This document shows positions 2,841 to 60,062 of a stretch of 64,000 bases of DNA, in pieces. Position 1 is the stretch's first letter; every line of letters begins with the position of its first letter. The translations under genes and the position numbers were made by a program. The stretch comes from Verrucomicrobiia bacterium (GTDB lineage Bacteria; Verrucomicrobiota; Verrucomicrobiia; Opitutales; Cerasicoccaceae). The stretch spans positions 1 through 64,000 of the forward strand of contig JAUIAM010000020.1 in assembly GCA_030425485.1 (NCBI GenBank). The letters run 5' to 3'. The notes below the pieces were generated by a model, which saw only the letters and a list, made by a program, of their open reading frames with translations, had not been told where the DNA came from and did no database searches.

Positions 2841-3575
2841 CTACTTGCGGCGACGGCGCAGGGCCACAAATGCCAGCGTAAGGACACCGGCCAGAGTAGC
2901 ATAAGCAGAAGGCTCCGGAACAGGTGTTTCGATCAACTCACCGTAGATCTGAATATTGTCCAGATTAAAGGTGCTACCAGCACCTGCATTGAAGGTGAAA
3001 GTAAAGCTCTGGGCAGCATTATCGATACCACTCAGAGCAGTACTAGATGTCTGCGTGACGTAAGTCATGCCAGCAGTGGTCGTCAAGGTGCTCGAATAAC
3101 CGGCATCACCCGTAAGCGCAATCGTGTCCGTGTTGCTCCCCAAAGGACTTGCGATAGATGCAGACAAGACAAGATCGAAGATTGAGCGACCAGCACCTAC
3201 GTCTACAGTGATGGAGAAGCTGCCGGTGGATACGCCGTTGAAATACTGGACAGCAGCAACTTCACTGGTGCTCAGCTGATTGGCAACAACACGGGTTACG
3301 ATGTCCAGATTCGTCGTGCCATTATTCCCGGGGCCAAAAAGAGAGCTCGCAGAAGCAAAGCTTATCGAAGAATAATCTCCAGCGTAAAAGTCATTTGAAC
3401 CATCAGGTGCCTTGATGATACCCGTTTGCGGAATATCGGTATAAGCAGACTCGAAAGTGTTACCATCGTAGTCATCGGATGTGCCGTTAAAATCATATGC
3501 AGCTAATAGTATAGCAGCATGTGACTGTGCAGCGAGCGCTAAGCCTAAAGCGGCCGTAATAAGTGTTTGTTTCAT
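2841..3575 (-). CDS. PEP-CTERM sorting domain-containing secreted protein
   Basis: Exported surface protein of 244 residues. An N-terminal signal peptide (MKQTLITAALGLALAAQSHA, cleavage near residue 20) is followed by a Ser/Thr/Gly-rich beta-sandwich-like body. The C-terminus has VPEPSAYATLAGVLTLAFVA plus an RRRRK tail, the PEP-CTERM signal that exosortases recognise for processing at the membrane. Shared signatures such as GSFSITVDVG and NLDNIQIYG match the neighbouring gene at 3723-4457, also 244 residues, so the two are tandem paralogues. Each has its own terminator, so they are probably separate transcripts. No exosortase gene is in the window. Function beyond surface sorting is unknown. 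Confidence 0.85.
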   Translation of the reverse strand: MKQTLITAALGLALAAQSHAAILLAAYDFNGTSDDYDGNTFESAYTDIPQTGIIKAPDGSNDFYAGDYSSISFASASSLFGPGNNGTTNLDIVTRVVANQLSTSEVAAVQYFNGVSTGSFSITVDVGAGRSIFDLVLSASIASPLGSNTDTIALTGDAGYSSTLTTTAGMTYVTQTSSTALSGIDNAAQSFTFTFNAGAGSTFNLDNIQIYGELIETPVPEPSAYATLAGVLTLAFVALRRRRK

Positions 3576-3675: not shown

Positions 3676-3708
3676 AAAAATGGCACTGCCTGATGCACAG
3701 GCAGTGCC
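3676..3708 (-). terminator. Rho-independent terminator of the PEP-CTERM gene at 3723-4457
   Basis: A perfect 11-bp inverted repeat (GGCACTGCCTG / CAGGCAGTGCC) around a 5-base loop is followed on the minus strand by five T residues. It lies 15 bases past the stop of the upstream PEP-CTERM gene. Confidence 0.85.
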
Positions 3709-3722
3709 ACGCAAATCGAACA

Positions 3723-4457
3723 CTACTTACACATACGGCGACGTGCGGCCACAAAGCCGAGCACGAGCACGCCAGCGATAGCAGCGTATGTAGAAGGCTC
3801 AGGAACTACCGTTCCGTTGAGCTGAATATTATCAAGGTTGAGGCTGTCGAATCCTGACTCAGGACCAGTCAGCGTACCACGTATGACGAAGGCATTCAGC
3901 GCATTCTCCTCTCCGCTCAGAAAAGTAGAGGTTGAGAATGCACCATAGTCACTGCTGCTCGTGGTAATCGTCTGGTTATCATCAGTACCGATAATTTCCC
4001 AAGTGATACCTACCAGTTGGCTAAACGGGGCACTAGCAGCATAGCTGATCGTAAGATCGTAGACCGTACGGGCACCGCCCAAGTCTACATTGATCTCGAA
4101 GAAGCTGCCAGTAGAACCGAAAAACTGGAGGTTGCCAATAGGACTCTGACTGAGCGTATTGGTAAACAGACGTGAAGAGATCGTATCGTTAACACCTGCA
4201 GAATTGATGCTGCCATCAAAGATAGTGCCGTCCGTTACACCGGTTGTATTCAGCGTCACAAAGTTACCAGCCAGCAGGTCATTAAAAGTCTGCTCGGTGG
4301 AATTTGTATCGCTGGAGAGGTCCGAGAACGTGGATTCGATCGTCGCATTGTCAAGCACGCCAGGGAGATTGGTAAAGTCGAACGCACCAATCAACATCGC
4401 GTGGAGGTGAGCGCCCATCATCAGGGCGCCCACTGTCAGAATGAATTTCTTGCTCAT
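3723..4457 (-). CDS. PEP-CTERM sorting domain-containing secreted protein (tandem paralogue)
   Basis: Exported protein of 244 residues with a signal peptide (about residues 1-20), an all-beta, Thr/Ser-rich body and the C-terminal signal VPEPSTYAAIAGVLVLGFVA with an RRRMCK tail. GSFFEINVDLGGARTVYDL and NLDNIQLNG parallel motifs in the gene at 2841-3575, indicating a local duplication followed by strong divergence. The Cys in the basic tail is unusual for this signal. Probably anchored or released at the cell surface; no catalytic motif is seen. Confidence 0.85.
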   Translation of the reverse strand: MSKKFILTVGALMMGAHLHAMLIGAFDFTNLPGVLDNATIESTFSDLSSDTNSTEQTFNDLLAGNFVTLNTTGVTDGTIFDGSINSAGVNDTISSRLFTNTLSQSPIGNLQFFGSTGSFFEINVDLGGARTVYDLTISYAASAPFSQLVGITWEIIGTDDNQTITTSSSDYGAFSTSTFLSGEENALNAFVIRGTLTGPESGFDSLNLDNIQLNGTVVPEPSTYAAIAGVLVLGFVAARRRMCK

Positions 4458-4500: not shown

Positions 4501-6120
4501 TTAGAGGTCGATGCCAGCACCGTTGTCAACCAGGATGCCGCGAACGTTCAGAGAGGTCCAGTTAGTGGTCCACAGAACGGAAGCAGGGCTGGATGGGAAC
4601 GCACCGACGTAGCTTACATTCTGGAAGAATGTAGAAGGCACGGGAACCATACCCGCCGGGTTGTTCAGCGTACCAACCGGGTTGATGCCCTTCTGGACGT
4701 TTTGCAGGTAAGGGAGAGGACCGTCGGCGTCAAAGATACCGAAGTTCGGGTTGGTGTTCGGACGGTTGCCGCTGGAAGAAGGCGTATTGTTCGCCAGGAT
4801 AGCAGCGGTCTCTTCCGAGTTGGTCAGAGCTTCCGGAGTGGTAGCAGGGACAGGAACACCTTCGTTGTAGGTATAGATGTCGTACCAGGTAGTGCCTGCG
4901 AGGCCGAGGTAGCCGCGATCGATCTGGTCGTAAGGCAGGTTGCTGAAGAACCCGTTGGTAAGACGGTTGAAGGTGTTGCCAGCGTACGTATTCTCGACCG
5001 TGAAGGGAGCGGAGTCGGTACCTGCGTGGTAGAAGACCGAGTTGTTGATCTGACCACCAAAGCCATGACGCATGTAGATAACGCGGTCGAGCTCGGTCGT
5101 GTCGTTACCGTCACCATCAACAACACCGAAAGCGGTCAGGTTGTAGATCGTCGGGTGAGAAACGGGAACAGCAAGGTAGTTAACGTTGTTACCTGCGTCC
5201 GTGCCGGAGTCGTCACCGTCGAGTTCGAGGAGGTGGTCAGAACCGTCCATGTTCTCGGCACCACCGTCAGCGATGATGAAGATGAACTGAGCCAGGCCGG
5301 TCCAGCCCTGGTCAACGTCGAGGCCGTCGTCGTCGAAGAAGGTGATGAGGATGTGGCTCATGTTAACCGTACCGCCGAAGATTTCGATACCGTCGTCACC
5401 GGAACCGGAGATTTCGACATGGTCAACCTGAGTACCAGCACCAACGCCACCAAGGGTCAGGCCCTGGAGCTCTTCGTCGAGCAGCGGAGTGTCGCCGGAG
5501 TTACGGATAGACACGTAGCTCAAGGAGCCAGAAGAGTCGTTCGGCAGATTGCCACCGTAAGTAACGAGCTCACCGTAGCCGGAACCAAGACCTTCGACCG
5601 TAGCTTCACCAGCGAGGCCGGTATCAGCCGTACCTGTGTTGATCGGAGCGTACCCGAGAAGGATAAGGGAACCCCAGAGGTTAGCAGAAGGATCTACCGG
5701 GTTGTTGAGCGGGTCAGAGTCAGCGATGTTGGCGTAAGGAGCGGTGGTGCGGTTACCGGATGCATCAGCAGCAGAGGTGAAGATGATCGGAGCACCAGCG
5801 GTACCTACAGCGTCAATAGCAGCGCCGCGAGATACGACAAGCGTTCCCGGAGCAAGGCCTGAACCACGGGGCTGGCCGTAGACGGTAACGCCTTCGCGGA
5901 TCGTCAGCGTCGAGCCAGCTTCCACGAAAGTGGTACCGTTGAGCACATACTCGGTATCGGAGTTATAGCCGTCGGGACCCAGGACGAGGTCGGAGCTGAT
6001 GACATAGGTCGGGCCAGCGTCATAGAGGCTGATCCCGGGCACATTCTCATCGAGAGTTGTGATGGCGCTGAGGCTGGAAGCCGCTGCGCACGTAGCGATA
6101 GCAAGTGCTAATTTTTTCAC
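4501..6120 (-). CDS. Secreted right-handed beta-helix protein associated with the TonB-dependent receptor
   Basis: Exported protein of 539 residues. The signal peptide (MKKLALAIATCAAASSLSA) is followed by a leader typical of a Bacteroidota/Verrucomicrobiota family that often sits beside TonB receptors: a stretch like STLTIREGVTVYG, then GTLVVSRGAAIDAVGTAGAP and IIFTSAAD. The middle is a repetitive parallel beta-helix with many Asp/Gly turns (DDDGLDVDQGW, HLLELDGDDSGTD), which could bind Ca2+. There is no PEP-CTERM or Por-type C-terminal signal. The gene lies 115 bases downstream of the receptor on the same strand, with an inverted repeat in the gap. It is inferred to be a periplasmic or surface partner of the receptor; the ligand is unknown. 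Confidence 0.7.
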   Translation of the reverse strand: MKKLALAIATCAAASSLSAITTLDENVPGISLYDAGPTYVISSDLVLGPDGYNSDTEYVLNGTTFVEAGSTLTIREGVTVYGQPRGSGLAPGTLVVSRGAAIDAVGTAGAPIIFTSAADASGNRTTAPYANIADSDPLNNPVDPSANLWGSLILLGYAPINTGTADTGLAGEATVEGLGSGYGELVTYGGNLPNDSSGSLSYVSIRNSGDTPLLDEELQGLTLGGVGAGTQVDHVEISGSGDDGIEIFGGTVNMSHILITFFDDDGLDVDQGWTGLAQFIFIIADGGAENMDGSDHLLELDGDDSGTDAGNNVNYLAVPVSHPTIYNLTAFGVVDGDGNDTTELDRVIYMRHGFGGQINNSVFYHAGTDSAPFTVENTYAGNTFNRLTNGFFSNLPYDQIDRGYLGLAGTTWYDIYTYNEGVPVPATTPEALTNSEETAAILANNTPSSSGNRPNTNPNFGIFDADGPLPYLQNVQKGINPVGTLNNPAGMVPVPSTFFQNVSYVGAFPSSPASVLWTTNWTSLNVRGILVDNGAGIDL

Positions 6121-6212: not shown

Positions 6213-6228
6213 GTTACAAACGCGTAAC
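6213..6228. promoter_or_regulatory. Palindrome GTTAC-N6-GTAAC upstream of the beta-helix gene
   Basis: Perfect 5-bp inverted repeat with a 6-base spacer, 93 bases upstream of the beta-helix start codon and 8 bases past the receptor stop. An identical-arm site with the same spacing occurs at 17191-17206, upstream of the TonB operon, which suggests an operator shared by the two transcripts. The TonB-operon copy argues against it being only a terminator stem. Confidence 0.4.
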
Positions 6229-6235
6229 AATAATG

Positions 6236-9200
6236 CTAGAAGGTCGCGGTAACGGAAAAACGCACGTCAACCCCAGCACGATAACTCATCCGCTGGTACT
6301 GCCCTTCCAAGGGCTCTCCTGCGTACTTAAGGCCTCGCTTCGTGTTCGTGATGTTTTTGAAAGCCATCCCAACCGTAACGTTATCCATATCGGGGTCAAA
6401 AAAACCAAGTGATTGCTGAACAATAACATCCAACTGGTAATACGCCTCAGTATACTCGTCCGCTGAATTACTAAAACCGGAACCAACGGTGGTAAGCACA
6501 TCACTTTGGGCAAAAACAGCCAGGGTGATGACAGTACCAGTATCCGGGTTGTCGTAGGAAATATCGGCGTTGGTAATCCATTCCGGCTGGTCAAACAACC
6601 GACGGCTGGTTGGGGGGCTATTGTTACCATATGGCGGGCCATCATACCCTACCCCGGGGCCAGAAACATTTGAGGGCTGGCCGGTAGCAGGATCAACACT
6701 CAGAATGTTAAAATAGCTACTGAATACGCTATCCGGGTAGGAGACACGCGCATTGATGTAGGCGGCATTTAAACCGATGGAGAAGTTCTCCAACTCATCA
6801 CCGAGGAACGAAAGGTCCGTACGAGCCTCAAACTCAAGTCCTTTCAGTTGTGCTTTACCGGGGTTATTAAAGAAAGTGATGAAGGGGCCAAGGTCTTCAT
6901 CCTGCAGGCGGATCTGCTCAATTGGGTTATTGATCGTCTTGTAGAAGGCGCCAAAAGCGATGTAGGCACCCGATTCAAACTCATAGGATAGGCCGATATC
7001 GTAGCTTACAGCCCTGCTCAGTTGAAGGTTTGAGTTACCCACAATGTAGTCATTCTGGACAGGATCATAGGTCATGATCGGTGTCAGCTCGCGAAATGAA
7101 GGCTGAGCAAAGGTCACATTTGCCCCACCCTTGATCGTCAATCCCTCAATGGGGTCGATCTTGAAGGTAGCCGCAGGCAGATAATTCGTCTGATCGATGA
7201 GCCCGCCCGCATCGGGGTTGGTAAAGTTGATAAGCTGACCATTGGTTAAATTCTGAGGCTGCGGACCGGAAGGGCGATAGTTGAGCACCTGGCGCAGTGT
7301 GCGCGTTCCACGACCGGGAATAAAGGCATCCGGATTGCCATTAGTGCTAAGCAATATTTTTTCCATACGCACCCCCCCGGTGACTTCAACCATATCCCAG
7401 CGATAGTTTCCGGTAATGTGGCCGGCGTTAATATTGCGATTATTCACGGCCACATTGGCATCGGCGTAGGACACAACGTTAGCCGGGTTGCTTGCGTCGA
7501 TATACTCGTCACCCGCGCCGGAGGGGGTATCGGCGGTACCGCCAGCTGTCACCGTTGTCCAGTACTGATAGGTCTGGCTTGTCTTACGTCCAGACTGATT
7601 GTGCAGATAGCCGCCACGGAATCCAATATCGTTTTCATCGTCCAACTCCCACTCGCGCGCAAAGTCGAGGCGGAAGGCATCCAGTTGCTCGGTAATATCA
7701 CGCCAAGTCTGAGTCAAGGGTAGCAGGCCGGCAGTGGTTTGAACAGGCAGAGTAATATAGTTGCCAGTATCGACGTCCTCAAAATAGGTGAAAACGCTTT
7801 GGTTAGGGGTGTTGCTGCTCGTGTAAACGTGCGTGTACCCCCAGGTAAACTCCAGCTCATCGATACCAATCAACTGGTGCTCGCCAAAGACCTGAAGTGC
7901 CCCCAGCTTTCGCTCTTCGTAATTCAGGACATCCTGATTCATCAACAAATTGCCAGGAGTGCCACCGAGGTTTCTTCCCACGAGGTTGAGCTCAGCCGGG
8001 GCTCTGCCATAGTCTGTCGTGACTCTGGAAATAACTGTGCCGTTGAAACTGATAGGAATGCCAGCAGCGTAGCCCGCTGGCATGTAGCCGTTGGATCGGC
8101 GCACTACCTGATCGATGGAGTTAAACGTCCCCAACGCCACAAAGCTGACCTTATTCAGCCCGTCCGGATCGAGGTCCATGGTCAAACCACCCATACCGGA
8201 GTAAAGCGTGTCAGCGACAGAGTTGGTGTAGTCGTAGTGCACACCACTGCCCAGGAGGTCTCCGGTATAATAGCCACCGGGAATAAAACCGGGGTCCAAG
8301 CCCGGAATGTTACCACTGCTATCGTAGGGACTCCCCGGAAAATTCGGCGGCGGCGTTCCCAGGATGCCATTATCGGTGTAATAGCGCTTCTGGTCAGTGC
8401 CTATCTGCGTGGTGTAGCTGGTGTCATAGGAAAAGGACATGATAAGCCCTACGTTGCGGTTCCACACCTCAAAGCTTTCACCAAAATTGACCCCCAGGCT
8501 GATACCGATCGGATTCGCCTTCTTCACACCGACAATTGCGGGCAGAATTTGCTTCTGCTGGGCGATGGCATCAGCACCGTTATCAGTGAATGTCGGACGA
8601 TCGTTCTGGTTCATCTCAAAGGGATTGGGATACAGGCCCTTTGAGGCCGGGTTTACCAGAAAGGTATCCAGCGCATTGGTATTGAAACGAAAGCCCGCCT
8701 TGAAGGACCCCTCAAACTCATCAGGGATAGCCTTGGTATTAAGATTAAAAGCAGCGCCAGTGGAATTGCTAGCGTTGTAGGGCAAGAAGGTTTTATTGCT
8801 GATCACATTGTCGATGATCGATGTCGGGAACAGGTCGAGCTGGAGCCCTTGCCGCACAGGGTCAGGGCTGGTAATAGGCAGCTCATTGAGGTAGGTGCTA
8901 TTGTAGCGGTCGCCCAGACCGCGAACGACCGCAAACTTCCCTTCAACCACCGTCACACCCGGCATCCGGTTGATAACGTCGGAGACATCCGTCGAGGCGT
9001 ATTTAGAAAAATCCTCGCTTGAAAGGAAGTCGATCGAGCCCGCATTTTCCTGACGAAAATCATTCAAGACATTATAGTCGTTTAACGCTTCTTCCGTGAT
9101 GATAAACTCATCCATGTCGAAGATATCAGCCGCCATGTCTGCCTGCTTCTCCTTCAGGGGGAAGTTCGCACGATTCGCCTTATCCGGGTAAACGACAAAT

Positions 9201-9694
9201 TTCCGCCACTCACCTTCGCGGTACCCTGCCTTGGTGAAGCGAATGCTGTAAACGCCCGAAGGGACATCAAGAAAACGATATTCGCCGTCACCATCCGTCA
9301 CGGATACCTTCTCCCGTGGGATCAGGCCCGCCTCTTCGCTCGCTTCTTCCTTAGGCCACTGGAGGATGACCGTTACCCCGGTAATGGTCTTACTGCTTTC
9401 TGAGTCAAAAACCTGCCCCACAACATTGCCCGTACCTGCGGGGATTTCATCGGGCACACTGCTGTCGTCCCCCTCAAAGACGACCTTATCGTTTGCACCA
9501 CCAAACAGCAAGGCGCTGTCATCGGTCCAGCTGTCATCGGCCGTACCTTCTGTTGAGCCCTCGGTCGCGCCATTGTCAGCCGGCTGGCCGTCTTCTTCGG
9601 CAAACGCATAGGCTGATGCGCAAAGCACCAACAGCGCTGTTACCCAGCAAACTCGCTGTCTATAGGTTAAAGTTAAAAGTGCCCAATGTATCAT
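6236..9694 (-). CDS. TonB-dependent outer-membrane receptor with N-terminal carboxypeptidase-regulatory-like domain
   Basis: Outer-membrane transporter of 1152 residues that would take up an unknown ligand using energy from the TonB system encoded upstream. A signal peptide covers about residues 1-32, followed by an acidic low-complexity linker to about 65. A CarboxypepD_reg-like beta-sandwich spans about 70-170 (GNVVGQVFDSES, SGVYSIRFTKAGY). Next come the FDMDEFIITEE segment and a plug domain of about 215-330 (DVINRMPGVTVVEGKFAVVRG, GLGDRYNSTYLNELP). The rest is a 22-strand-type barrel ending in aromatic Phe (VRFSVTATF). There is no SusD gene nearby, so it is not a standard SusCD pair. It is the last gene of the run of closely spaced genes from 17032, only 26 bases after the preceding stop. 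Confidence 0.9.
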   Translation of the reverse strand: MIHWALLTLTYRQRVCWVTALLVLCASAYAFAEEDGQPADNGATEGSTEGTADDSWTDDSALLFGGANDKVVFEGDDSSVPDEIPAGTGNVVGQVFDSESSKTITGVTVILQWPKEEASEEAGLIPREKVSVTDGDGEYRFLDVPSGVYSIRFTKAGYREGEWRKFVVYPDKANRANFPLKEKQADMAADIFDMDEFIITEEALNDYNVLNDFRQENAGSIDFLSSEDFSKYASTDVSDVINRMPGVTVVEGKFAVVRGLGDRYNSTYLNELPITSPDPVRQGLQLDLFPTSIIDNVISNKTFLPYNASNSTGAAFNLNTKAIPDEFEGSFKAGFRFNTNALDTFLVNPASKGLYPNPFEMNQNDRPTFTDNGADAIAQQKQILPAIVGVKKANPIGISLGVNFGESFEVWNRNVGLIMSFSYDTSYTTQIGTDQKRYYTDNGILGTPPPNFPGSPYDSSGNIPGLDPGFIPGGYYTGDLLGSGVHYDYTNSVADTLYSGMGGLTMDLDPDGLNKVSFVALGTFNSIDQVVRRSNGYMPAGYAAGIPISFNGTVISRVTTDYGRAPAELNLVGRNLGGTPGNLLMNQDVLNYEERKLGALQVFGEHQLIGIDELEFTWGYTHVYTSSNTPNQSVFTYFEDVDTGNYITLPVQTTAGLLPLTQTWRDITEQLDAFRLDFAREWELDDENDIGFRGGYLHNQSGRKTSQTYQYWTTVTAGGTADTPSGAGDEYIDASNPANVVSYADANVAVNNRNINAGHITGNYRWDMVEVTGGVRMEKILLSTNGNPDAFIPGRGTRTLRQVLNYRPSGPQPQNLTNGQLINFTNPDAGGLIDQTNYLPAATFKIDPIEGLTIKGGANVTFAQPSFRELTPIMTYDPVQNDYIVGNSNLQLSRAVSYDIGLSYEFESGAYIAFGAFYKTINNPIEQIRLQDEDLGPFITFFNNPGKAQLKGLEFEARTDLSFLGDELENFSIGLNAAYINARVSYPDSVFSSYFNILSVDPATGQPSNVSGPGVGYDGPPYGNNSPPTSRRLFDQPEWITNADISYDNPDTGTVITLAVFAQSDVLTTVGSGFSNSADEYTEAYYQLDVIVQQSLGFFDPDMDNVTVGMAFKNITNTKRGLKYAGEPLEGQYQRMSYRAGVDVRFSVTATF

Positions 9695-9720
9695 AGCGAT
9701 AATTCTTTAAAAAGTCAGCT

Positions 9721-10536
9721 CTAGTGGCTGAGGTTTTCCCTGTCATCGTACAGGTGCTTGCTTAAATCCTCATTGACCAAGGCGGCGACAGAGGCATTCA
9801 GCGACTCGATGTCCTGCAGTGCCGCTGCATCATATTCACGCAGGATGCGCCCGTTGCGGTCCACGATTACCATGGCCAGATCCTGCTGCGAGAAATCGTA
9901 CAGTTCACGATAGGGCATATTCACGGGCGGGATCAGCGTAGGCAGGCTTACCTCGTTGTCTTTAAAATAGGCCAAAAGCGTCATGTAATCTCGCTCTGAG
10001 GGTAGCAGGACCGGATGAATAACCGCTTCCTCGGTCTGGGGTGAGAAGGCTTCGAGACGCTCGATCAGGCTATCGCTGGCCTGCTCTCCCGGACTGCAAT
10101 GAACGAACGCCATATAATCCCAAGTGAAGACGGATTTATCCTCAATCACATGAAAGTTGATTTCCTTGAGCTTAAAGTACTTCGTGAACAGGTGAGCGTT
10201 GAGTACCATGCGATCATCCCAGCCCCCTTTACTGGAGAGCTGCTCATACTGCTCCACAAAGTCCGTTTGATCCAGCGCGAGGGCTTGCACACCGTAACGA
10301 CCAAAATCCACGAGCACCTTTCCACCCTCCACGCGCAAAAGTACCCCTTTGGTTCCCGCCTTTAATTCATGACGGCTTTCATGCTCGATCGGCACAGCTT
10401 CAACTAGCCTTACATGGGTAGGCCACCATTCAGAACGGAACTCAATCTGCTCGATCTCAGGGAAACCTTGCACACTGCCAACCCCTCCTAAAAGAAGCAT
10501 GAGCGTGAACGTGAAATAACGGGTAAATGAGTTCAT
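9721..10536 (-). CDS. Unrecognised secreted protein in the TonB operon (271 aa)
   Basis: Not recognised. A signal peptide (about residues 1-24) precedes a small beta-rich segment around 55-90 (TKGVLLRVEGGKVLVDFGRYG) that resembles an SH3-like barrel. A mixed domain at about 105-250 with SERDYMTLLAYF and LAMVIVDRNGRILREYD has a thioredoxin-like look but no CxxC motif. It lies between the 248-residue secreted protein and the receptor, with gaps of 24 and 26 bases, so it is very likely co-expressed with the TonB system. A periplasmic accessory role is inferred from position only. Confidence 0.6.
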   Translation of the reverse strand: MNSFTRYFTFTLMLLLGGVGSVQGFPEIEQIEFRSEWWPTHVRLVEAVPIEHESRHELKAGTKGVLLRVEGGKVLVDFGRYGVQALALDQTDFVEQYEQLSSKGGWDDRMVLNAHLFTKYFKLKEINFHVIEDKSVFTWDYMAFVHCSPGEQASDSLIERLEAFSPQTEEAVIHPVLLPSERDYMTLLAYFKDNEVSLPTLIPPVNMPYRELYDFSQQDLAMVIVDRNGRILREYDAAALQDIESLNASVAALVNEDLSKHLYDDRENLSH

Positions 10537-10560
10537 GGCTTATCGTTAGGGCATGTAAGG

Positions 10561-11307
10561 CTAGTTGCTCGCACCGGCCTTGCGGGCGGCAAGTTCTTCT
10601 CCCGTGAGGGCATTATTCACCTGTGGGAGTAATTTCGGACGGTCCGCACTCGGGCGGCTTGAAGCCATGTGCACACCCTCATAAGAGGCTTGTGCTGTAG
10701 GCTGCGGATTATACGTTCCATCGAGTCCCACGCCTTGAGGCAGGTTTCGCTGTATTTCCTGCTGTTGCTCATAGGTCAGCACGATATCCGGGATAGGCTC
10801 GGGCTTGGGCTTGCGGCTCACTTTGGGCAAAAATGCTGTCCGCATGGGCTCTTCTGCATTTTTACTGCCGGAACTGCTAACTACCAGCATGCTGCCGCGC
10901 TGTATGTCTAAGCCCGCCAAGTCATCCTGGTTCATTTCGAGCGTGTACTCAGCATGGTAGTATTCGACCGTGACTGATCGTCCGTCTGGCGTATGGGAAA
11001 GCACAGAAATATCGCCCGATCCGGCTTCGTCGCTTCTAAGCAGAATCCCTTCATTCGTCCCAATCATCTGGAGGGAGAATATCTGAACCTGCCCAAGGTC
11101 CATATAGCCATGATAGGTGTAGGGGATCGCTTTCTTCAGCGTGCTCGGAGGCGGAACAACGGGTTGGGCAGGTAGTTTCGCGTGGTAACCGGAAGGGAGA
11201 AAGGGCGAATCAGTAAGCAAGTTGCTACCGACCGCAGCCAAGGTCGTACCAGGCAGCAAAAACATAATGGCTGCAAGGCATACATGGGCTGTAGATGCGC
11301 AAATCAT
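10561..11307 (-). CDS. Unrecognised secreted or membrane-anchored protein in the TonB operon (248 aa)
   Basis: Not recognised. The N-terminal hydrophobic segment (about residues 5-25) is a signal peptide or anchor. A beta-rich domain at about 65-150 (YTYHGYMDLGQVQIFSLQ, GRSVTVEYYHAEYTLEM) loosely recalls the homology region of GspC-type secretion proteins. A Pro/Gln-rich, poorly ordered C-terminal tail follows. It lies 27 bases after the TPR gene. An adaptor role between inner-membrane and periplasmic parts is a guess from domain appearance and position. Confidence 0.55.
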   Translation of the reverse strand: MICASTAHVCLAAIMFLLPGTTLAAVGSNLLTDSPFLPSGYHAKLPAQPVVPPPSTLKKAIPYTYHGYMDLGQVQIFSLQMIGTNEGILLRSDEAGSGDISVLSHTPDGRSVTVEYYHAEYTLEMNQDDLAGLDIQRGSMLVVSSSGSKNAEEPMRTAFLPKVSRKPKPEPIPDIVLTYEQQQEIQRNLPQGVGLDGTYNPQPTAQASYEGVHMASSRPSADRPKLLPQVNNALTGEELAARKAGASN

Positions 11308-11334
11308 GAAGACGGTATTGAGCTGGTGCCCGCA

Positions 11335-12717
11335 TTAAGAAGCATTACGGGCTGCCCGCTCGACTTTGTCCAAGAAAGTTACGATGCGCGGGTCATCCTT
11401 ATAATTGAGTGATTCTTTGAGTAGTGGAACCGCCTCTGCGTAGCGCTTTTGTGCTACGAGCATACGTGCGTGCTCTACGAGTGCCGTAGCCTCGTAGCCT
11501 TCGATTTTAGCAGCCATTTCGTAATTGAATACAGCTTCCTCGATCTGGTCTTTTTTCTGATAAATTGACGCCAGCTCAAGCAGGGCATCGCCGTTCAAGG
11601 CATCCATAGTAATAATTTCTTCAAGCGTTGCGATGGCCTCGTCTATCTTACCCTGAGTACGTACCACCTTGGCCTGAAGCACCTTTACGGAGAGTTGCTG
11701 TTCCTTATCAATACCACTGTAGCTGCTTTCAATCACCTCAAGCATAGCCTGAGCACGCTCGTACTCCTGCAGTTGGACTAACATCTGGCCGATCCGCATG
11801 GCAGGCTCGAAGTACTGCCCGGCGCTATCCGTTTCGATCAACTCCCCATAGGTGCTAATCGCCAGGTCGTACATCTTCATATTCATGTAAATGTCGCCCA
11901 GCAGCTTAATGCTTGTTGGCTTGGCCTTGCCCATGCGGCGCAGAATTTCAAGATTCGCTACTGCGCGAGACGGTTGCCCCAAGCCGAGATAGGTATTTAC
12001 TTGCAACAGCCAGTATTGTGCGTTGTTGGGGTCTTCCTCTATCAATGACTGGAAAATGGCACTCGATTCTGCGTACTTCTCCATCCCGAGAAGCGAGCGG
12101 GCAAGCCCGAGCTTCCAGTCTTTAACCTTTGGCTGCTGCAGGATGGCTTCAGTATAAGCACTTTCGGCAGCGAGGTAATCACCGCGGTTCAAATAGATGT
12201 AGCCGAGCAAGCCATAAAGGCGTCCATCCTTTTCCCCCAATTCAATGGCCTCGTGGATGTGGTCTTGCGCCTGTTCGAGCTCTTGATCCTGAAGCAGCAC
12301 CAAGGCCAGGTTTTTGTGCGCACGTCGGTAGCTCGGGTACTTCTTGATCGCTTGCTGGTAGTACTGCTTGGCCTTATCCGTATCCTGGCTTTGCAGGTAT
12401 AAGTTGGCCAAAACAAAAATCATCGCTGCAGAAGAGTTCTCATTCACTTCGCTCTCCAGTCGCTGGGCCGCCGCACTCGGGCTGGTCTTAATCAGCTCGA
12501 TGACTTCACGGAAGACTTCAACCTCTTCCTTCGTGATCTTCGGCTCAGAGTCTTCCAGTGGAGGATAACTGCCAATGAAGGAATCGACAAAGGTCGGGTC
12601 GCTCCACTTGAGCTGCCACTGGCTTTCAAATTCAGAGCTCGGGTACTGCGCCTGGAGCGCTGCACTGCCGATGAGCAGGGTGATGATGAGAGCAAAGCTG
12701 CTTTTAATGACGTTCAT
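11335..12717 (-). CDS. Periplasmic TPR protein of the TonB system
   Basis: Exported protein of 460 residues. A signal peptide (MNVIKSSFALIITLLIGSAALQA) is followed by about nine to ten tetratricopeptide repeats from about residue 85 onwards (for example AIKKYPSYRRAHKNLALVLL, GRLYGLLGYIYLNRGDYLAA), a protein-protein interaction scaffold. A TPR gene directly after tonB is a known feature of DUF3450/TtpC-type TonB clusters in Vibrio and other gammaproteobacteria. The gap to tonB is 12 bases. It may link TonB or the ExbB coiled coil to the receptor; that is inference. Confidence 0.8.
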   Translation of the reverse strand: MNVIKSSFALIITLLIGSAALQAQYPSSEFESQWQLKWSDPTFVDSFIGSYPPLEDSEPKITKEEVEVFREVIELIKTSPSAAAQRLESEVNENSSAAMIFVLANLYLQSQDTDKAKQYYQQAIKKYPSYRRAHKNLALVLLQDQELEQAQDHIHEAIELGEKDGRLYGLLGYIYLNRGDYLAAESAYTEAILQQPKVKDWKLGLARSLLGMEKYAESSAIFQSLIEEDPNNAQYWLLQVNTYLGLGQPSRAVANLEILRRMGKAKPTSIKLLGDIYMNMKMYDLAISTYGELIETDSAGQYFEPAMRIGQMLVQLQEYERAQAMLEVIESSYSGIDKEQQLSVKVLQAKVVRTQGKIDEAIATLEEIITMDALNGDALLELASIYQKKDQIEEAVFNYEMAAKIEGYEATALVEHARMLVAQKRYAEAVPLLKESLNYKDDPRIVTFLDKVERAARNAS

Positions 12718-12729
12718 GGTAAGCGGTGT

Positions 12730-13389
12730 TTATTTAATGCGGAAAGGTAGCGGAATACGGACACGGGTTTTGACACTGCGGCCATTCTTGACGCCGGGCT
12801 CGAATTCCCATTGCGCAATCGCCTCTACGGCTGCTTCGCCGAACTCTGGGTGGGTGGCCGAGTGCACCTTGATGTCACGGACTTTGCCGTTTTCATCCAC
12901 AATGAAGATGAGGCGTACTTCTCCTTCTATATTTCTCTTTAAGTACTTCTTGGGGTACTTGGGGCGCACCTTTTTTACCGCGCGCGGCATCTGGTCAAGG
13001 TCACCCAGATCAAAGATGTCATCCATATTAAGGTCATCCTGATTGGCCGAAAAGCCAGGCATGGCAAAGTCACCCGTCAGGTCGCCGCCCATACCGGGGT
13101 TGAGCGCGAGGTCGAGCTGCTCAAGGGTGAGCTGCGGCGGCTCTTCCTCCAGCTCCGGCGGTTCCTCTTCCTCTTCTTCCTCGATGATCTCTTCTTCCTC
13201 GAACTCAAACTCCTCGGGTGGAGGGAGCGAAGCTTGCCGCACGTCGTAGGTTTCGGCCTGCTTGGTCACGTCGGCGATAAACTGCGTGATCGGTACCAGC
13301 AGGAAAACGAAAAACGTGAACAAGCAACCGAGCACAATGCTGAGGATCGCATTGCGACTGGCCGTAGGTGCTTGGTAAATCGTGGGCAT
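12730..13389 (-). CDS. tonB: TonB family energy transducer
   Basis: Transmits energy from the ExbB/ExbD motor across the periplasm to the outer-membrane receptor. It is 219 residues long. One N-terminal membrane anchor lies at about residues 14-38, followed by a short acidic Glu/Pro linker (about 50-85, with runs of Glu) instead of the long Pro-Lys rod of E. coli TonB. A C-terminal TonB domain covers about 135-219 with VRPKYPKKYLKRNIEGEV, DENGKVRDIKV and AIAQWEFEPGVKNGRSVKTR. The short linker is typical of the TonB2 type and fits a system in which an extra periplasmic part (TPR or coiled coil) helps bridge the gap. It sits 18 bases after the second exbD. Confidence 0.9.
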   Translation of the reverse strand: MPTIYQAPTASRNAILSIVLGCLFTFFVFLLVPITQFIADVTKQAETYDVRQASLPPPEEFEFEEEEIIEEEEEEEPPELEEEPPQLTLEQLDLALNPGMGGDLTGDFAMPGFSANQDDLNMDDIFDLGDLDQMPRAVKKVRPKYPKKYLKRNIEGEVRLIFIVDENGKVRDIKVHSATHPEFGEAAVEAIAQWEFEPGVKNGRSVKTRVRIPLPFRIK

Positions 13390-13407
13390 CGGATAGTGTC
13401 CTGAAAA

Positions 13408-13809
13408 TTATTCCTGGCTGGAAAAAGCGATACGGGTGGCACCAGCCAGCTTGGCCTCGGTCACGACCTTGTCGAAGAGCCCGGTGTCCGCGTTGGCATC
13501 GGCCTGGATGTTGATCGGCACGTCTCCCTTGGCCAGGTCCTTGCGCACCTGAGGGGCGACGCCGCCCACGCCGATTTCCTTACCGCCGTAGATGACTTTG
13601 TTCTCAGCGGTGATGGCGATCTGCACGCTGTTTTTGTCCAGCTTGTCGTAAGTGACGATACGCGGCTTGGTGACCTCCACGCCTGTCTCTTCCACGAAGA
13701 CCGTCGTCACGATGAAGAAGATGAGCAGGATGAAGATACAGTCGATCATCGGGGAGAGATTGATCTCCATCTCCTCGTCTTTTTCGGCTGATATGGTCGG
13801 GCGTGGCAT
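13408..13809 (-). CDS. exbD: ExbD/TolR family biopolymer transport protein (second of pair)
   Basis: Subunit of the proton-driven ExbB-ExbD motor, 133 residues. It has the usual short cytosolic N-terminus, a single membrane helix (about residues 19-40) starting with the conserved proton-carrying Asp in NLSPMIDCIFILLIFFIVTT, and a periplasmic domain. The helix is nearly identical to that of the neighbouring ExbD at 13816-14226, whereas the periplasmic domains differ. The overall design suggests a heterodimer of two ExbD paralogues. The gap to the preceding gene is 6 bases. Confidence 0.9.
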   Translation of the reverse strand: MPRPTISAEKDEEMEINLSPMIDCIFILLIFFIVTTVFVEETGVEVTKPRIVTYDKLDKNSVQIAITAENKVIYGGKEIGVGGVAPQVRKDLAKGDVPINIQADANADTGLFDKVVTEAKLAGATRIAFSSQE

Positions 13810-13815
13810 GGGAAA

Positions 13816-14226
13816 TTAGTTCGTGGTGGTGTAGGAAAGGCCCTGCGCTCCCGCGTCGGTGGCGATGGCCCAGACGCTGGCAAAAACGCCGTGACTGGAG
13901 TCCTTGTGCGCGGTGATGGAAACGGGAATTTCGCGGTCACGGGCAATGGCGGTCTTCACCTTCTGGGCCAGCGCGGTGAGGTCGATTTCGCTGCCGTCGA
14001 GCATGACCTTGTCCGCCTTGGTAATCTCGATGGTCACGCGCTCCTTGTCCTCGTTGAGGTTGGAAGCCGATGAGGCGTCCGGCTTATTCACCTGCAAGCC
14101 GACTTCCTCGACAAAGACTGTCGTCACGATAAAGAAGATGAGTAGGATGAAGATACAGTCGATCATCGGCGAAAGCTCGATCTCGGGCGTTCCTTCATCT
14201 TCCTGGAATCTGCTGCGTACGGACAT
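13816..14226 (-). CDS. exbD: ExbD/TolR family biopolymer transport protein (first of pair)
   Basis: 136-residue ExbD with the motif ELSPMIDCIFILLIFFIVTT at about residues 17-36; the Asp is the conserved protonatable residue. A periplasmic domain follows. It is paralogous to the next gene, with closely matching membrane helices. It starts 2 bases after the short exbB gene, which indicates translational coupling. Confidence 0.9.
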   Translation of the reverse strand: MSVRSRFQEDEGTPEIELSPMIDCIFILLIFFIVTTVFVEEVGLQVNKPDASSASNLNEDKERVTIEITKADKVMLDGSEIDLTALAQKVKTAIARDREIPVSITAHKDSSHGVFASVWAIATDAGAQGLSYTTTN

Positions 14227-14228
14227 GG

Positions 14229-14822
14229 CTATTCAGCTTTGAGTTGGGAAAGGGTCATGCTTTCGAGACGCGCAATGTGAGCCTCGATTGCGTGGCGTTT
14301 GCGGCGGATAATCATGACGAAGAACACACCGGGGAGCGCGATGGTCAGCCCCGTCTGCGTGGTGATGAGCGCCTTGCGGATACCATCTGCCACCATCTCG
14401 GCCGTATCGGCACCGCCGCCCTCGGACAGCGCGGAGAAGGTAAGCAACATCCCAATAACCGTACCGAGCAGTCCGACCATTGGCGCACAGGCCACCAGCG
14501 ATGAGATGAACACCGTGCGGCGCTCGATCATCCCGATCATGCCCATGCGTACCTCATCGAAGCGGTTGCGTATCTGCTTCTGCGTCTGCTTTCCTCCGGT
14601 AACGTAGCGGATGATCTCCCCTACCCGGCCCTCGGCCTCCTCGGGGTTGAGCACCCAAGCCGGCCACTGCTGCAAATCTGCTGACCCGATGTTGGTCTTA
14701 TTCAGATAAAGCAAGGTCTGAATGGCCAGCGAGTAGAGCATGACCGAGAGCAGCGCCAGCGGATACATGACCCAACCGCCGTTGCCCCAAATGGTCAGAA
14801 TTTCCTGGAAGTTGAACTCCAT
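14229..14822 (-). CDS. exbB: MotA/TolQ/ExbB proton channel family protein (short form)
   Basis: Inner-membrane channel subunit of the ExbB/ExbD motor, 197 residues. Three membrane segments are visible: about residues 16-37 (GWVMYPLALLSVMLYSLAIQ), 105-130 (SSLVACAPMVGLLGTVIGML) and 150-172 (TTQTGLTIALPGVFFVMII). The MVGLLGTVIGMLLTF motif is diagnostic of the MotA/TolQ/ExbB family. It is the conventional ExbB partner in a cluster that also has a longer, TtpC-like ExbB. Confidence 0.9.
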   Translation of the reverse strand: MEFNFQEILTIWGNGGWVMYPLALLSVMLYSLAIQTLLYLNKTNIGSADLQQWPAWVLNPEEAEGRVGEIIRYVTGGKQTQKQIRNRFDEVRMGMIGMIERRTVFISSLVACAPMVGLLGTVIGMLLTFSALSEGGGADTAEMVADGIRKALITTQTGLTIALPGVFFVMIIRRKRHAIEAHIARLESMTLSQLKAE

Positions 14823-14846
14823 AAATCGTGCGCCTTACTCAAACAA

Positions 14847-16241
14847 TTACTTCATCGTGCTGATGCCGTTGACGTAGCCCACGGCGGACTCCTCCATCGT
14901 GGCGAGCTTGCGCTTGGCGTAGCGCGAGAGCATGCCGTGAAGGATGAGCACCGGGATGGCCACCGTCAGACCGAGCTCAGTCGTGACCAGCGCCTCGGAG
15001 ATACCCGTCGAGAGCGAGCGGGCGTCACCTGTGCCGAAAATCGTGATGAGGTTAAAGGTCTTTATCATACCGATAACCGTACCAAGCAGACCGAGCAACG
15101 GCGCAGCAGCAGCCGTAATGGCAAGGAAGGGCAGAAAACGCTCCAGACGCGGACGCGCCTTGAGGATGCGCTCGAACATGATTTCTTCAATCACGCCGCG
15201 CTTGTCCTCATAGTGGGTAACCCCTTGCACAAGCATCTCGCCCGCTTCGCCCTTCACCTCGCGGGCACGCTCAAGTGCCGCCTCGGGCTTACCATCGGCC
15301 AGCAGGTCAAGCGTGTCCTGCACGTCCTTGGGCTTACACTCGGCAAAGCCACCGATCTCCACCATCTTGAACAAGCCGAGCAAGACGGCAATCACGCCAA
15401 GGCTGAGGATGACGTAACCGACAATCTGCCCCTTCTGGATGTGCTCGAAGTAGCTCTCGCGTTGCTTCTCAATCATGATGGCTTTGCCCTCGGAAGCATC
15501 GGCAGGGAACGCGCCCTGACCGGATTCGGCCAGCTCCACCAAACCGGGAGTAAAGGATGCCGGGAGCGAAACAACAACCGGATCGGCCACATTGATGCGG
15601 TCCTCGATCAAACCGACTGCGGTTCCGTCCTTGCTGACAAAGAAGAGCGAAGGCCCGATGGCAATAAACGTACCCTCCTTGAGCACACTTTCCGAGGAAA
15701 GCGCGCTGCCGGAGAAGCTGAAGCCCCCGAGCTGGTCATCAAGGCGATCCAGTGCCATGTCCACAACAGCCACCTGCCGCTGCAAACGCTCGGACTCGTC
15801 GATGTTCACGTCTGCCGGAGCATTCTTGGCCGCGTCTAGCACTTGGCCAAATTTCTGTCGCTCGCTGACCGCCATCTGCGAGTTGAGGTTGTTCACGTAC
15901 TCGACCAGACGGTCGGAGATGTATTTGTTAATATCCTCAAGCGACTTCACCTGCTTGCGCAGGTCGTCCAGCGCAATTGTGCGGCTGTCGCGGACCTTGA
16001 GCAGGCGCTCGGCCTCGCGAGTCTTTTGCAGCACTTGCTTCTCGAGCTCGTTGATTTCCTTGGAAAGCGGGATTTTCTCCTCGGCTATCTTGGCCCGTAT
16101 ATCGGCCAATTCCTTGAGCGAGGCCTGAAGCTGGCTGTCAACATCGGTGCTGACGGAGTTAAAGTCCTGCGCTCGCAGGCCGGTGCTCATAAGCAGCACA
16201 GCGGCAAGGCAGGCAGAGAACAGCTTGATTTGGTTAAACAT
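14847..16241 (-). CDS. ttpC: TtpC-like long ExbB: coiled-coil periplasmic domain fused to a MotA/TolQ/ExbB channel domain
   Basis: 464 residues. A signal peptide (about residues 1-24) is followed by a long coiled coil (about 28-125, with stretches such as EINELEKQVLQKTREAERLL), a periplasmic beta domain (about 180-250), and a C-terminal ExbB-type channel domain with membrane segments near 268-290, 375-400 and 420-440 (APLLGLLGTVIGMIKTF). This fusion is the architecture of TtpC from the Vibrio TonB2 system, where the long ExbB is needed for TonB2-dependent uptake and is not replaced by the short ExbB. The gene symbol is given by analogy of architecture and gene order. Confidence 0.85.
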   Translation of the reverse strand: MFNQIKLFSACLAAVLLMSTGLRAQDFNSVSTDVDSQLQASLKELADIRAKIAEEKIPLSKEINELEKQVLQKTREAERLLKVRDSRTIALDDLRKQVKSLEDINKYISDRLVEYVNNLNSQMAVSERQKFGQVLDAAKNAPADVNIDESERLQRQVAVVDMALDRLDDQLGGFSFSGSALSSESVLKEGTFIAIGPSLFFVSKDGTAVGLIEDRINVADPVVVSLPASFTPGLVELAESGQGAFPADASEGKAIMIEKQRESYFEHIQKGQIVGYVILSLGVIAVLLGLFKMVEIGGFAECKPKDVQDTLDLLADGKPEAALERAREVKGEAGEMLVQGVTHYEDKRGVIEEIMFERILKARPRLERFLPFLAITAAAAPLLGLLGTVIGMIKTFNLITIFGTGDARSLSTGISEALVTTELGLTVAIPVLILHGMLSRYAKRKLATMEESAVGYVNGISTMK

Positions 16242-16261
16242 AGCAGTGTTCAGTTAAAAAA

Positions 16262-17032
16262 TTATTGGAGTTTGGCGGGCATCTCGATGAACGAGATTTC
16301 GTCCTCCGTCCCTTCCTTGATGTTGCGCAGTGTGTTCAGGCCGGGAGCAAGCTGGTTGTCTGTGCTGAATTCCCAGCCCTCCTGGCCAAGACTGCCGACA
16401 CCGGCATAGGCACCCGTGCTGTCCACCCAGTAGGCGGCACCCAGGCCCCAGTACAGTTGCCAGACCTGACGGGCTTCGTCGCCCTGCCCCTCAATCTTCT
16501 CGGTCGAACTAAAGAGGTGGATGCTGCGGTTAAAACGCTCGGCCTGGCCGAGGATACCCAGCACGGTCACGAGGCGGTCCGAGAGACTGACGCGGGCTTT
16601 GGCCGGATCTTTCGGAATCTGCACGATGTAGGGCTCCAGCTTACTGCGGAGCGGCTTGGGAAATTGCGGTACCAGCGCGAGGAGCTTCACTTCAAGCTGG
16701 CGGATGCTGTCAGTCATCGATGCCTCGGCGCGCTTGAACTCAACACGGTTCAGCAGAAGCTGGTCGCGCTCCTTGTCTGCCTCGGTGGAATCGCCTTCGA
16801 GCTCGGCGATTTTTTCCTCCAGCATGGCGAGCTCGTCCTCAAGCAGCTTGCGCGTATCCTCAAGGATTTCTTTTTCGACCGCCCAGTCGTTCTTCTGCTC
16901 AGAGATCAGTTGTTGGGTTTCGACCCACTTATCGAGCTTGGACTTCGTAGCGGTGACGTCCGTGTCTGCCTGCGCGAAAACCATACCTGCGGCAAGGCTT
17001 AGCGCGGTGAATAGCAAAGGCTTTAACTTCAT
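16262..17032 (-). CDS. DUF3450 family periplasmic coiled-coil protein
   Basis: First gene of the TonB operon. 256 residues with a signal peptide (about 1-22) and a long coiled coil (about 28-120, rich in Glu, Lys and Leu). A C-terminal domain has GLGAAYWVDSTGAYAGVG and GWEFSTDNQLAPGLNTL, characteristic of DUF3450. In Vibrio-type clusters this gene precedes ttpC, and its coiled coil resembles the N-terminal part of TtpC, so the two may pair. Molecular role unknown. The 379-base region upstream should hold the operon promoter. Confidence 0.85.
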   Translation of the reverse strand: MKLKPLLFTALSLAAGMVFAQADTDVTATKSKLDKWVETQQLISEQKNDWAVEKEILEDTRKLLEDELAMLEEKIAELEGDSTEADKERDQLLLNRVEFKRAEASMTDSIRQLEVKLLALVPQFPKPLRSKLEPYIVQIPKDPAKARVSLSDRLVTVLGILGQAERFNRSIHLFSSTEKIEGQGDEARQVWQLYWGLGAAYWVDSTGAYAGVGSLGQEGWEFSTDNQLAPGLNTLRNIKEGTEDEISFIEMPAKLQ

Positions 17033-17411
17033 AGCGAGAATTGGTTGAAGACAAAGCCGTCTAATCAGCAGAAATACCCCACCTTGACTAGAACTCTAGT
17101 GTTAAACTTATGTCACAAACACCAGCAAACACCCTCTCCATCGCTGTAACATAACGGAAACAACCGTTGACCAACAAAGGCTTGCATATTGTTACGAAAA
17201 GGTAACGAGCAACTCACAACTGCCCACGCAACGGCAGACAGATTTTTTTAACCCAAATGACAAGGGCGTGATTTTCTCAAAAAATCACTACAGAGCCGGA
17301 CAAAAATCCTGCTGAAATACCCCTTCGGCGCGGGTAAACCGCACCCGGTTTAACGCGAGATGTTATAGCCGCAGCTGTGTAATCTGCGGACAGAACATTT
17401 CTTTATAGACG
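17033..17411. promoter_or_regulatory. 379-base intergenic region with several small palindromes, probable control region of the TonB operon
   Basis: No gene is visible. Three short perfect inverted repeats stand out: ACTAGA-AC-TCTAGT at 17087-17100, AACGG-N6-CCGTT at 17153-17168 and GTTAC-N6-GTAAC at 17191-17206. The last has the same arms and spacing as the site at 6213-6228. I could not assign a convincing -35/-10 pair on the minus strand. The region also separates the operon from the 473-residue gene upstream. Confidence 0.45.
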
Positions 17412-60060: not shown

Positions 60061-60062
60061 GG

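What the first reader, a model, noticed from the sequence alone, without database searches (positions are those of the whole stretch)
6236..17032. Ten-gene TonB system with its own receptor and two unknown periplasmic parts
Ten minus-strand genes run from DUF3450 to a 1152-residue receptor with gaps of 2-27 bases, so one long transcript is likely. The order DUF3450 - long ExbB (TtpC-like) - short ExbB - ExbD - ExbD - TonB - TPR resembles the Vibrio TonB2/TtpC system (established for that family). The cluster here adds two unrecognised secreted proteins and, directly after them, a TonB-dependent receptor. A dedicated machine-plus-receptor set is unusual because TonB systems usually serve many receptors.
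Basis: partly seen in the sequence, partly recalled or inferred. Interest (0 to 1): 0.8.

Follow-up and report, generated by a model that had tools for sequence, protein, structure and literature searches.

The report
Phosphate-starvation TonB import operon
This bacterium carries one long gene set that builds an energy-driven outer-membrane pump together with its only pump-driven receptor, and shared promoter signals and neighbouring genes indicate that the set is switched on when phosphate runs out, which points to scavenging of phosphorus compounds rather than iron.

Summary
The ten-gene run is real, co-directional, with gaps of 2-27 bases. The receptor is the only TonB-dependent receptor found in this 3.8 Mb, 98% complete genome, so a dedicated set is expected here.

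All ten family genomes examined keep motor, receptor and ElpS-like gene together; eight also keep both 'unknown' genes. Related sets recur in other Opitutales families and other phyla. The unknowns are not featureless: 10561-11307 carries a GspC-HR/PilP-like domain; 9721-10536 is a beta domain plus a thioredoxin fold without CxxC.

The main new result is function. Receptor/ElpS-like pairs lie beside pst, porin O/P or phoBR genes in many genomes. A Pho-box-like direct repeat found at pstS promoters also sits before DUF3450 and the ElpS-like gene here and in held-out relatives (16 of 21 top hits in 4.3% of the sequence). Relatives in Flavobacterium and Caulobacter are induced by phosphate starvation.

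Best reading: a Pho-controlled phosphorus-import operon with its own TtpC-class TonB motor, a new variant of a known kind. Substrate and adaptor roles are inferred.

The parts
16262..17032 (-). DUF3450 protein (TtpB-like), secreted coiled coil
   Evidence: Pfam PF11932 2.9e-21; first gene of the unit in relatives
14847..16241 (-). Long ExbB (TtpC-like) with signal peptide, periplasmic coiled coil and MotA_ExbB domain
   Evidence: PF01618 2.1e-28
14229..14822 (-). Short ExbB
   Evidence: PF01618 4.2e-22
13816..14226 (-). ExbD 1
   Evidence: PF02472 9.6e-27
13408..13809 (-). ExbD 2
   Evidence: PF02472 1.4e-24
12730..13389 (-). TonB, the only strong TonB_C match in the genome
   Evidence: PF03544 1.6e-18; own-genome search
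11335..12717 (-). TPR protein (TtpD-like), secreted
   Evidence: TPR families; position as ttpD in PMC6957404
10561..11307 (-). Unknown A: secreted; beta domain (about residues 60-126) with GspC-HR/PilP-like fold, then a disordered tail
   Evidence: Model pLDDT above 90 over most of residues 61-120; the 8 best matches in pdb_via are GspC or PilP, 3oss_C Z 7.8, rmsd 2.0, 62 aligned; sequence profile's best chain is GspC 2lnv, E 0.28
9721..10536 (-). Unknown B: secreted; N-terminal beta domain plus thioredoxin/TlpA fold without CxxC
   Evidence: Model mean pLDDT 85.5; 4fyu_A Z 13.0, rmsd 3.5, 130 aligned; no CxxC at the active-site position in 12 relatives
6236..9694 (-). TonB-dependent receptor: CarboxypepD_reg (91-180), TonB-box-like motif (about 188-199), Plug (215-297), barrel; the only one found in the genome
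4501..6120 (-). ElpS-like secreted protein (presumed right-handed beta-helix) with invariant acidic clusters
   Evidence: Alignment A3; same-strand receptor within 600 bp in 59 of 76 loci; ElpS/FII literature
3723..4457 (-). Small PEP-CTERM protein, last gene before the terminator
   Evidence: PF07589 8.6e-5; conserved beside the ElpS-like gene
2841..3575 (-). Second, related PEP-CTERM protein, probably a separate transcript
   Evidence: own terminator at 2816-2789
17191..17208 (-). Pho-box-like direct repeat TCGTTACCTTTTCGTAAC upstream of DUF3450
   Evidence: an overlapping site scores above all 139 controls with the motif learnt only from pstS promoters
17099..17116 (-). Conserved promoter element GTGACATAAGTTTAACAC, Pho-box-like, with a matching element in seven relatives
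6213..6230 (-). Pho-box-like repeat TTGTTACGCGTTTGTAAC between receptor and ElpS-like gene
3680..3710 (-). Intrinsic terminator, 13-pair stem plus T tail, end of the unit

Best explanation
A phosphate-starvation (PhoB-type) operon for taking up a phosphorus-containing ligand across the outer membrane. A TtpC-class motor (DUF3450, long ExbB, short ExbB, two ExbD, TonB, TPR) uses the proton gradient to drive the genome's single TonB-dependent receptor. The co-regulated ElpS-like beta-helix protein, and perhaps the PEP-CTERM protein, act at or outside the cell surface to capture or present the phosphorus source. The two accessory proteins (a GspC/PilP-like domain, and a beta domain joined to a redox-dead thioredoxin fold) are periplasmic adaptors between motor and receptor, or holders of the incoming ligand. 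Shown here: gene content, conserved association with the receptor/ElpS-like pair and with pst/phoBR genes, shared Pho-box-like promoter repeats, predicted folds of the accessory proteins. Inferred: import direction, substrate, adaptor roles, single transcript.
For: Synteny: all ten family genomes examined keep motor, receptor and ElpS-like gene together. In G049 the set is contiguous with porin O/P, PstS and PstC, in G033 (L042) with porin O/P and PstS, and in G010 a PhoB/PhoR-like pair follows. Other phyla: of 80 ElpS-like loci chosen without regard to phosphate, 8 hold a PstS and about 15 a PhoR-like kinase, mostly next to a PhoB-like regulator; L123 is PhoB-PhoR...receptor-ElpS-like-PstC-PstA-PstB-PhoU. 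Promoters: a motif from DUF3450 promoters finds pstS promoters, also in genomes where unknown B was not found; a motif learnt only from pstS promoters of 20 other genomes ranks this DUF3450 promoter above all 139 controls, DUF3450 set p=1.3e-5, ElpS-like set p=2.7e-4; in held-out loci 16 of 21 top hits fall in cluster or pst promoters, 4.3% of the sequence. Experiments on relatives: F. johnsoniae TBDT Fjoh_0545 and FII Fjoh_0546 beside phoBR are induced on Pi depletion (fold change listed as 8.0 and 9.9), the TBDTs reported as Pi-depletion-specific (PMC8115612); Caulobacter ElpS is made on phosphate starvation beside receptor CC0171 (PMC2996285). No Fur-consensus match in the window.
Against: No expression or uptake data for this lineage. 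No pst or pho gene was recognised near the cluster in the loci of the window's own genus. The Pho box is defined here by comparison, not by footprinting. The six pst training sites of one motif were partly picked because they resembled the cluster motif; the 20-genome motif avoids this but is weaker and does not single out every relative. Mann-Whitney p values ignore relatedness of genomes. In Caulobacter CC0171 was expressed in rich and poor media alike, and its deletion did not stop ElpS production (PMC2996285).
Confidence: 0.72

Rival explanations
1. [quoted passage not shown] the GspC-like protein would help couple cargo and channel.
For: The receptor has the Oar-type CarboxypepD_reg + Plug architecture (PMC6434023). 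Caulobacter ElpS reaches the surface independently of its T2SS by an unknown route while encoded beside a TBDR (PMC2996285). The ElpS-like gene is adjacent to the receptor in most genomes. Unknown A resembles a secretion-system component.
Against: Gene adjacency is equally expected for a surface ligand-binding partner, as in SusC/SusD. The one TBDT shown to be needed for secretion serves a protease, which is not a cargo of this kind. CC0171 deletion did not stop production of ElpS-3Flag, though surface display in that mutant was not described in the passages read.
Confidence: 0.13
2. An iron or siderophore TonB2-type system that happens to carry its own receptor.
For: Motor order as in the Fur-regulated Vibrio TonB2 operon (PMC6957404).
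Against: Association with pst, phoBR and porin O/P; Pho-box-like promoters; no Fur-consensus match in the window; no siderophore-receptor family reaches its cut-off.
Confidence: 0.05
3. A carbohydrate (polysaccharide) uptake system; the beta-helix protein binds glycans and the phosphate link is secondary, for example phosphorylated glycans.
For: FI/FII were modelled as polygalacturonase-like (PMC8115612); the T. turnerae TonB2 system supports growth on cellulose (PMC10734418).
Against: No glycoside hydrolase was recognised among the cluster genes; promoters share the pst motif; the F. johnsoniae TBDTs were reported as induced by Pi depletion only.
Confidence: 0.1

Closest known systems
Vibrio TonB2/TonB3 systems (ttpB-ttpC-exbB-exbD-tonB-ttpD; PMC6957404)
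   Same: Same motor gene order with DUF3450/TtpB, long ExbB/TtpC and TPR/TtpD; TonB3 also has a receptor gene in the operon.
   Different: Two ExbD; receptor near the end, followed by ElpS-like and PEP-CTERM genes; two extra periplasmic proteins; Pho-box-like rather than Fur promoter; TonB3 function unknown in Vibrio (PMC10734418).
Caulobacter ElpS (CC0170) and TBDR CC0171 (PMC2996285)
   Same: Adjacent receptor and extracellular ElpS-type protein linked to phosphate starvation; L140 (Hyphomonadaceae) shows the Caulobacter-like order ElpS-like, TBDR, GspD, GspE.
   Different: Here no lipobox, no type II secretion genes in the cluster, a dedicated TonB motor instead, extra genes.
Flavobacterium johnsoniae PUSIV: TBDT Fjoh_0545 and lipoprotein FII Fjoh_0546 beside phoBR (PMC8115612)
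   Same: Receptor with a beta-helix (pectin-lyase-fold) partner, induced on Pi depletion.
   Different: No motor genes reported in that cluster; a lipoprotein; phoBR adjacent, which is not so in this window.
Myxococcus Oar/PopC with its Ton system (PMC6434023)
   Same: CarboxypepD_reg receptor with a dedicated Ton system.
   Different: Secretes a protease; no ElpS-like or PEP-CTERM partner mentioned in the passages read.
Stenotrophomonas TBDR-pTFP module (PMC13217887)
   Same: A receptor paired with a periplasmic thioredoxin-fold protein, also reported from Opitutales.
   Different: pTFP has a CxxC (CAPC) and an MntR-controlled promoter; unknown B lacks CxxC and has an extra N-terminal beta domain.

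Membership tests
TtpC-class (Vibrio TonB2/TonB3-type) TonB system | Gene order DUF3450/TtpB - long ExbB/TtpC - ExbB - ExbD - TonB - TPR/TtpD | tested here: met
   the only difference is a second ExbD
TtpC-class (Vibrio TonB2/TonB3-type) TonB system | Receptor encoded in the operon (TonB3 only) | tested here: met
   receptor after the motor genes, not at the beginning
Vibrio TonB2 iron system | Fur-controlled promoter | tested here: inconclusive
   no match to the Fur consensus within 3 mismatches; Fur sites of this phylum unknown
Vibrio TonB2 iron system | Supports uptake of several siderophores | not testable with these tools
   only one receptor was found in the genome
Pho regulon | Promoter element shared with pstS | tested here: met
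Pho regulon | Induction on phosphate limitation through PhoB | not testable with these tools
   PhoB-like regulators exist in the genome, best 242.5 bits, below the curated cut-off
ElpS (Caulobacter CC0170) lipoprotein | Next to a TonB-dependent receptor of the same family | tested here: met
   gap 115 bp; same-strand receptor within 600 bp in 59 of 76 loci
ElpS (Caulobacter CC0170) lipoprotein | Lipoprotein signal (lipobox) | tested here: not met
   N-terminus MKKLALAIATCAAASSLSAITT read by eye as an ordinary signal peptide; so called ElpS-like, not ElpS
ElpS (Caulobacter CC0170) lipoprotein | Sequence relationship to ElpS itself | tested here: inconclusive
   ElpS sequence not at hand; relatives with Caulobacter-like synteny found (L140)
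GspC-HR/PilP domain (unknown A) | HR/PilP fold | tested here: met
   best 8 rows, Z 7.8 to 5.5, on a predicted model; sequence support weak, E 0.28
GspC-HR/PilP domain (unknown A) | Partner secretin in the same locus | tested here: not met
   no secretin among the genes of the cluster
Thioredoxin/TlpA oxidoreductase (unknown B) | Thioredoxin fold | tested here: met
   4fyu_A Z 13.0, rmsd 3.5, 130 aligned
Thioredoxin/TlpA oxidoreductase (unknown B) | CxxC active site | tested here: not met
   absent at the active-site position in all 12 aligned proteins; the single CxxC, in L043, lies in the N-terminal signal region
Oar-type secretion TBDT | CarboxypepD_reg extension plus Plug | tested here: met
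Oar-type secretion TBDT | Required for export of a protein | not testable with these tools
   needs a deletion mutant

The most novel reading that the evidence does not exclude
A TonB motor that, under phosphate starvation, drives outer-membrane secretion or surface display of an ElpS-like beta-helix protein and a PEP-CTERM protein through a dedicated receptor, with a GspC/PilP-like protein as coupling part: a Ton-powered secretion route that would also explain how ElpS-type proteins cross the outer membrane.
Probability: 0.12. Interest if true: 0.85.

Novelty: new variant of a known kind. Interest (0 to 1): 0.62.

Why it matters
TtpC-class TonB operons that carry their own receptor have no known function (TonB3 in Vibrio), and the widespread ElpS/receptor pair has no known mechanism. 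Here the two are one promoter-linked unit under Pho-box-like control, so both become testable questions about phosphorus scavenging. One paper search for Verrucomicrobiota, phosphate starvation, PhoB and TonB-dependent receptors together found nothing. The two accessory proteins are new candidate parts between a TonB motor and a receptor.

Tried and rejected
Iron hypothesis: Fur consensus scan, no match. E. coli-type Pho-box consensus CTGTCAT-N4-CTGTCAT on single promoters: not significant for the window's own promoter (p 0.095), replaced by comparative motifs. First guess of pst promoters in genus g1 (upstream of the gene before pstS) showed nothing; the element lies between that gene and pstS. 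PDB profile search with the ElpS-like alignment: no match; Pfam and NCBIfam: no match. Phycosocius locus L152 thought to carry type II secretion genes: it carries type IV secretion genes; only L140 keeps the Caulobacter-like order. Weak 'PstB' hits at 1e-18 to 1e-22 in the census are generic ABC ATPases and are not counted.
Full report
Observation. Ten minus-strand genes run from 17032 to 6236 with gaps of 2-27 bases. Pfam identifies DUF3450, a long and a short ExbB, two ExbD, TonB, TPR repeats and a receptor with CarboxypepD_reg and Plug domains; two proteins hit nothing significant. A promoter/terminator scan shows no strong terminator inside the run; the first strong minus-strand one is at 3710-3680, behind two more co-directional genes: 4501-6120 (gap 115) and 3723-4457 (gap 43).

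Genome context. The draft genome (3.81 Mb, 98.2% complete) has one Plug-domain protein and one match to the receptor profile, both this receptor, and one strong TonB_C protein. Ten ExbD genes exist, so other ExbB/D motors are present, but this is the only evident TonB-receptor pair. A dedicated machine is therefore what this genome must have.

Conservation. In the same genus and a second genus (seven relatives) the order DUF3450 to TPR, unknown A, unknown B, receptor, ElpS-like, PEP-CTERM is kept; in one of them DUF3450 was masked in the gene list by an overlapping frame and read directly. In the second genus unknown A is assigned by position and alignment rather than by a significant pairwise match. 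Two further genera of the family have motor, receptor and ElpS-like gene without the two unknowns. In another family of the order (G049, G112, G033) the genes are split into facing groups and gain a LolA-like gene; G049 continues into porin O/P, PstS and PstC. Loci from other phyla also join parts of the motor with the receptor/ElpS-like pair, for example L109, L110, L113, L134 and L147. Unknown B was found in 12 of 132 genomes of the order with the single sequence.

The two unknowns. Unknown B models well (mean pLDDT 85.5): an N-terminal beta domain and a thioredoxin/TlpA fold, best chain Z 13.0. No CxxC is present at the active-site position in the 12 aligned proteins, so a redox role is unlikely. 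Unknown A has one confident beta domain; the eight best structural matches are GspC-HR or PilP, Z 7.8 to 5.5, then a drop to 4.8. The sequence profile independently ranks GspC first, though at E 0.28. The resemblance is of fold; it does not show a secretin partner.

The ElpS-like protein. It has no Pfam or NCBIfam match, but its family is widespread; in 59 of 76 loci a same-strand receptor lies within 600 bp. Invariant acidic residues (for example D242, D243, E246, D264, D265, D268, D270, E299, D301) suggest a metal site (inference). The paper on F. johnsoniae lists a receptor and a pectin-lyase-fold lipoprotein (Fjoh_0545, Fjoh_0546) beside phoBR, induced on phosphate depletion (PMC8115612), and relates such lipoproteins to Caulobacter ElpS, which sits beside receptor CC0171 (PMC2996285). 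L140 keeps the Caulobacter-like order. The window protein lacks a lipobox, so it is called ElpS-like only.

Phosphate link by neighbourhood. Of 80 loci fetched by the ElpS-like profile alone, 8 hold a PstS, and PhoR-like kinases, mostly beside PhoB-like regulators, appear in about 15. Selected assignments were confirmed with NCBIfam and Pfam: PstS above cut-off in L076, L098 and L042, PstC and PstB above cut-off in L123, PhoU, porin O/P. Two Bacteroidota regulators tested have a PhoB family as best match but below the curated cut-off.

Phosphate link by promoters. Upstream of DUF3450 in this family lies a direct repeat of GTAAC-like half-sites with an 11-base period, the spacing of Pho boxes. 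A matrix from four such sites finds pstS promoters as best or near-best hits, including in G083 and G117, where unknown B was not found. A matrix from six pst sites scores all nine DUF3450 promoters above every control that is not itself a pstS promoter, and recovers pstS promoters of this genus that were not used in training. These two site sets were partly chosen by eye. An unsupervised motif from the pstS upstream regions of 20 other genomes gives the same repeat, mixed with A+T-rich noise; with it the window's DUF3450 promoter scores above all 139 controls, DUF3450 promoters as a set p=1.3e-5 and ElpS-like promoters p=2.7e-4. In seven loci fetched afterwards, 16 of 21 top hits of the six-site matrix fall in cluster or pst/pho promoter zones that make up 4.3% of the sequence; the unsupervised matrix gives 9 of 21. 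Binomial and rank p values treat related genomes as independent and are only guides; the zones were listed by hand from the gene map.

Function. The simplest account is a PhoB-controlled operon that imports a phosphorus compound through its own receptor, driven by a TtpC-class motor. Regulation is the best supported part; import direction, substrate and adaptor roles are inferred. Secretion of the ElpS-like protein through the receptor, as reported for Oar and PopC (PMC6434023), is the main rival and would be more novel. The genome has three exosortase-family genes above cut-off, so the PEP-CTERM protein could be processed.

Novelty. Parts are known: TtpC-class motors (PMC6957404), the ElpS/receptor pair (PMC2996285, PMC8115612). 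The joined unit, its Pho-box-like control and the two accessory proteins appear undescribed in the papers searched; most subscription journals are not in that library. It is filed as a new variant of a known kind.

Noticed in passing
window 59629-60446: A second pair of adjacent ExbD genes on the minus strand in the same window, without a TonB match near it in the genome search.
   Followed up: no
L228 (6951-7715), L229 (7364-8128), L042 (7618-8388), L098 (16919-17671): A LolA-like secreted protein of about 254 aa (weak PF17131 match in L042) sits in the unit in other Opitutales families and is absent from the loci of the window's own genus.
   Followed up: partly
L191 6842-6870 and L190 6934-6951: Strong Pho-box-like repeats upstream of a second operon that ends in another PstS-like protein in genus g2.
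   Followed up: no
L042 3-1025: Another receptor-like C-terminal fragment (not checked by profile) directly upstream of the motor genes in that relative.
   Followed up: no
L152 16603-20513: Type IV secretion genes (VirB4-like, TrbL/VirB6-like) directly downstream of an ElpS-like/receptor pair in Candidatus Phycosocius.
   Followed up: partly
L232 7461-14559: Two tandem receptors of this family precede the ElpS-like gene, each with its own Pho-box-like site.
   Followed up: no
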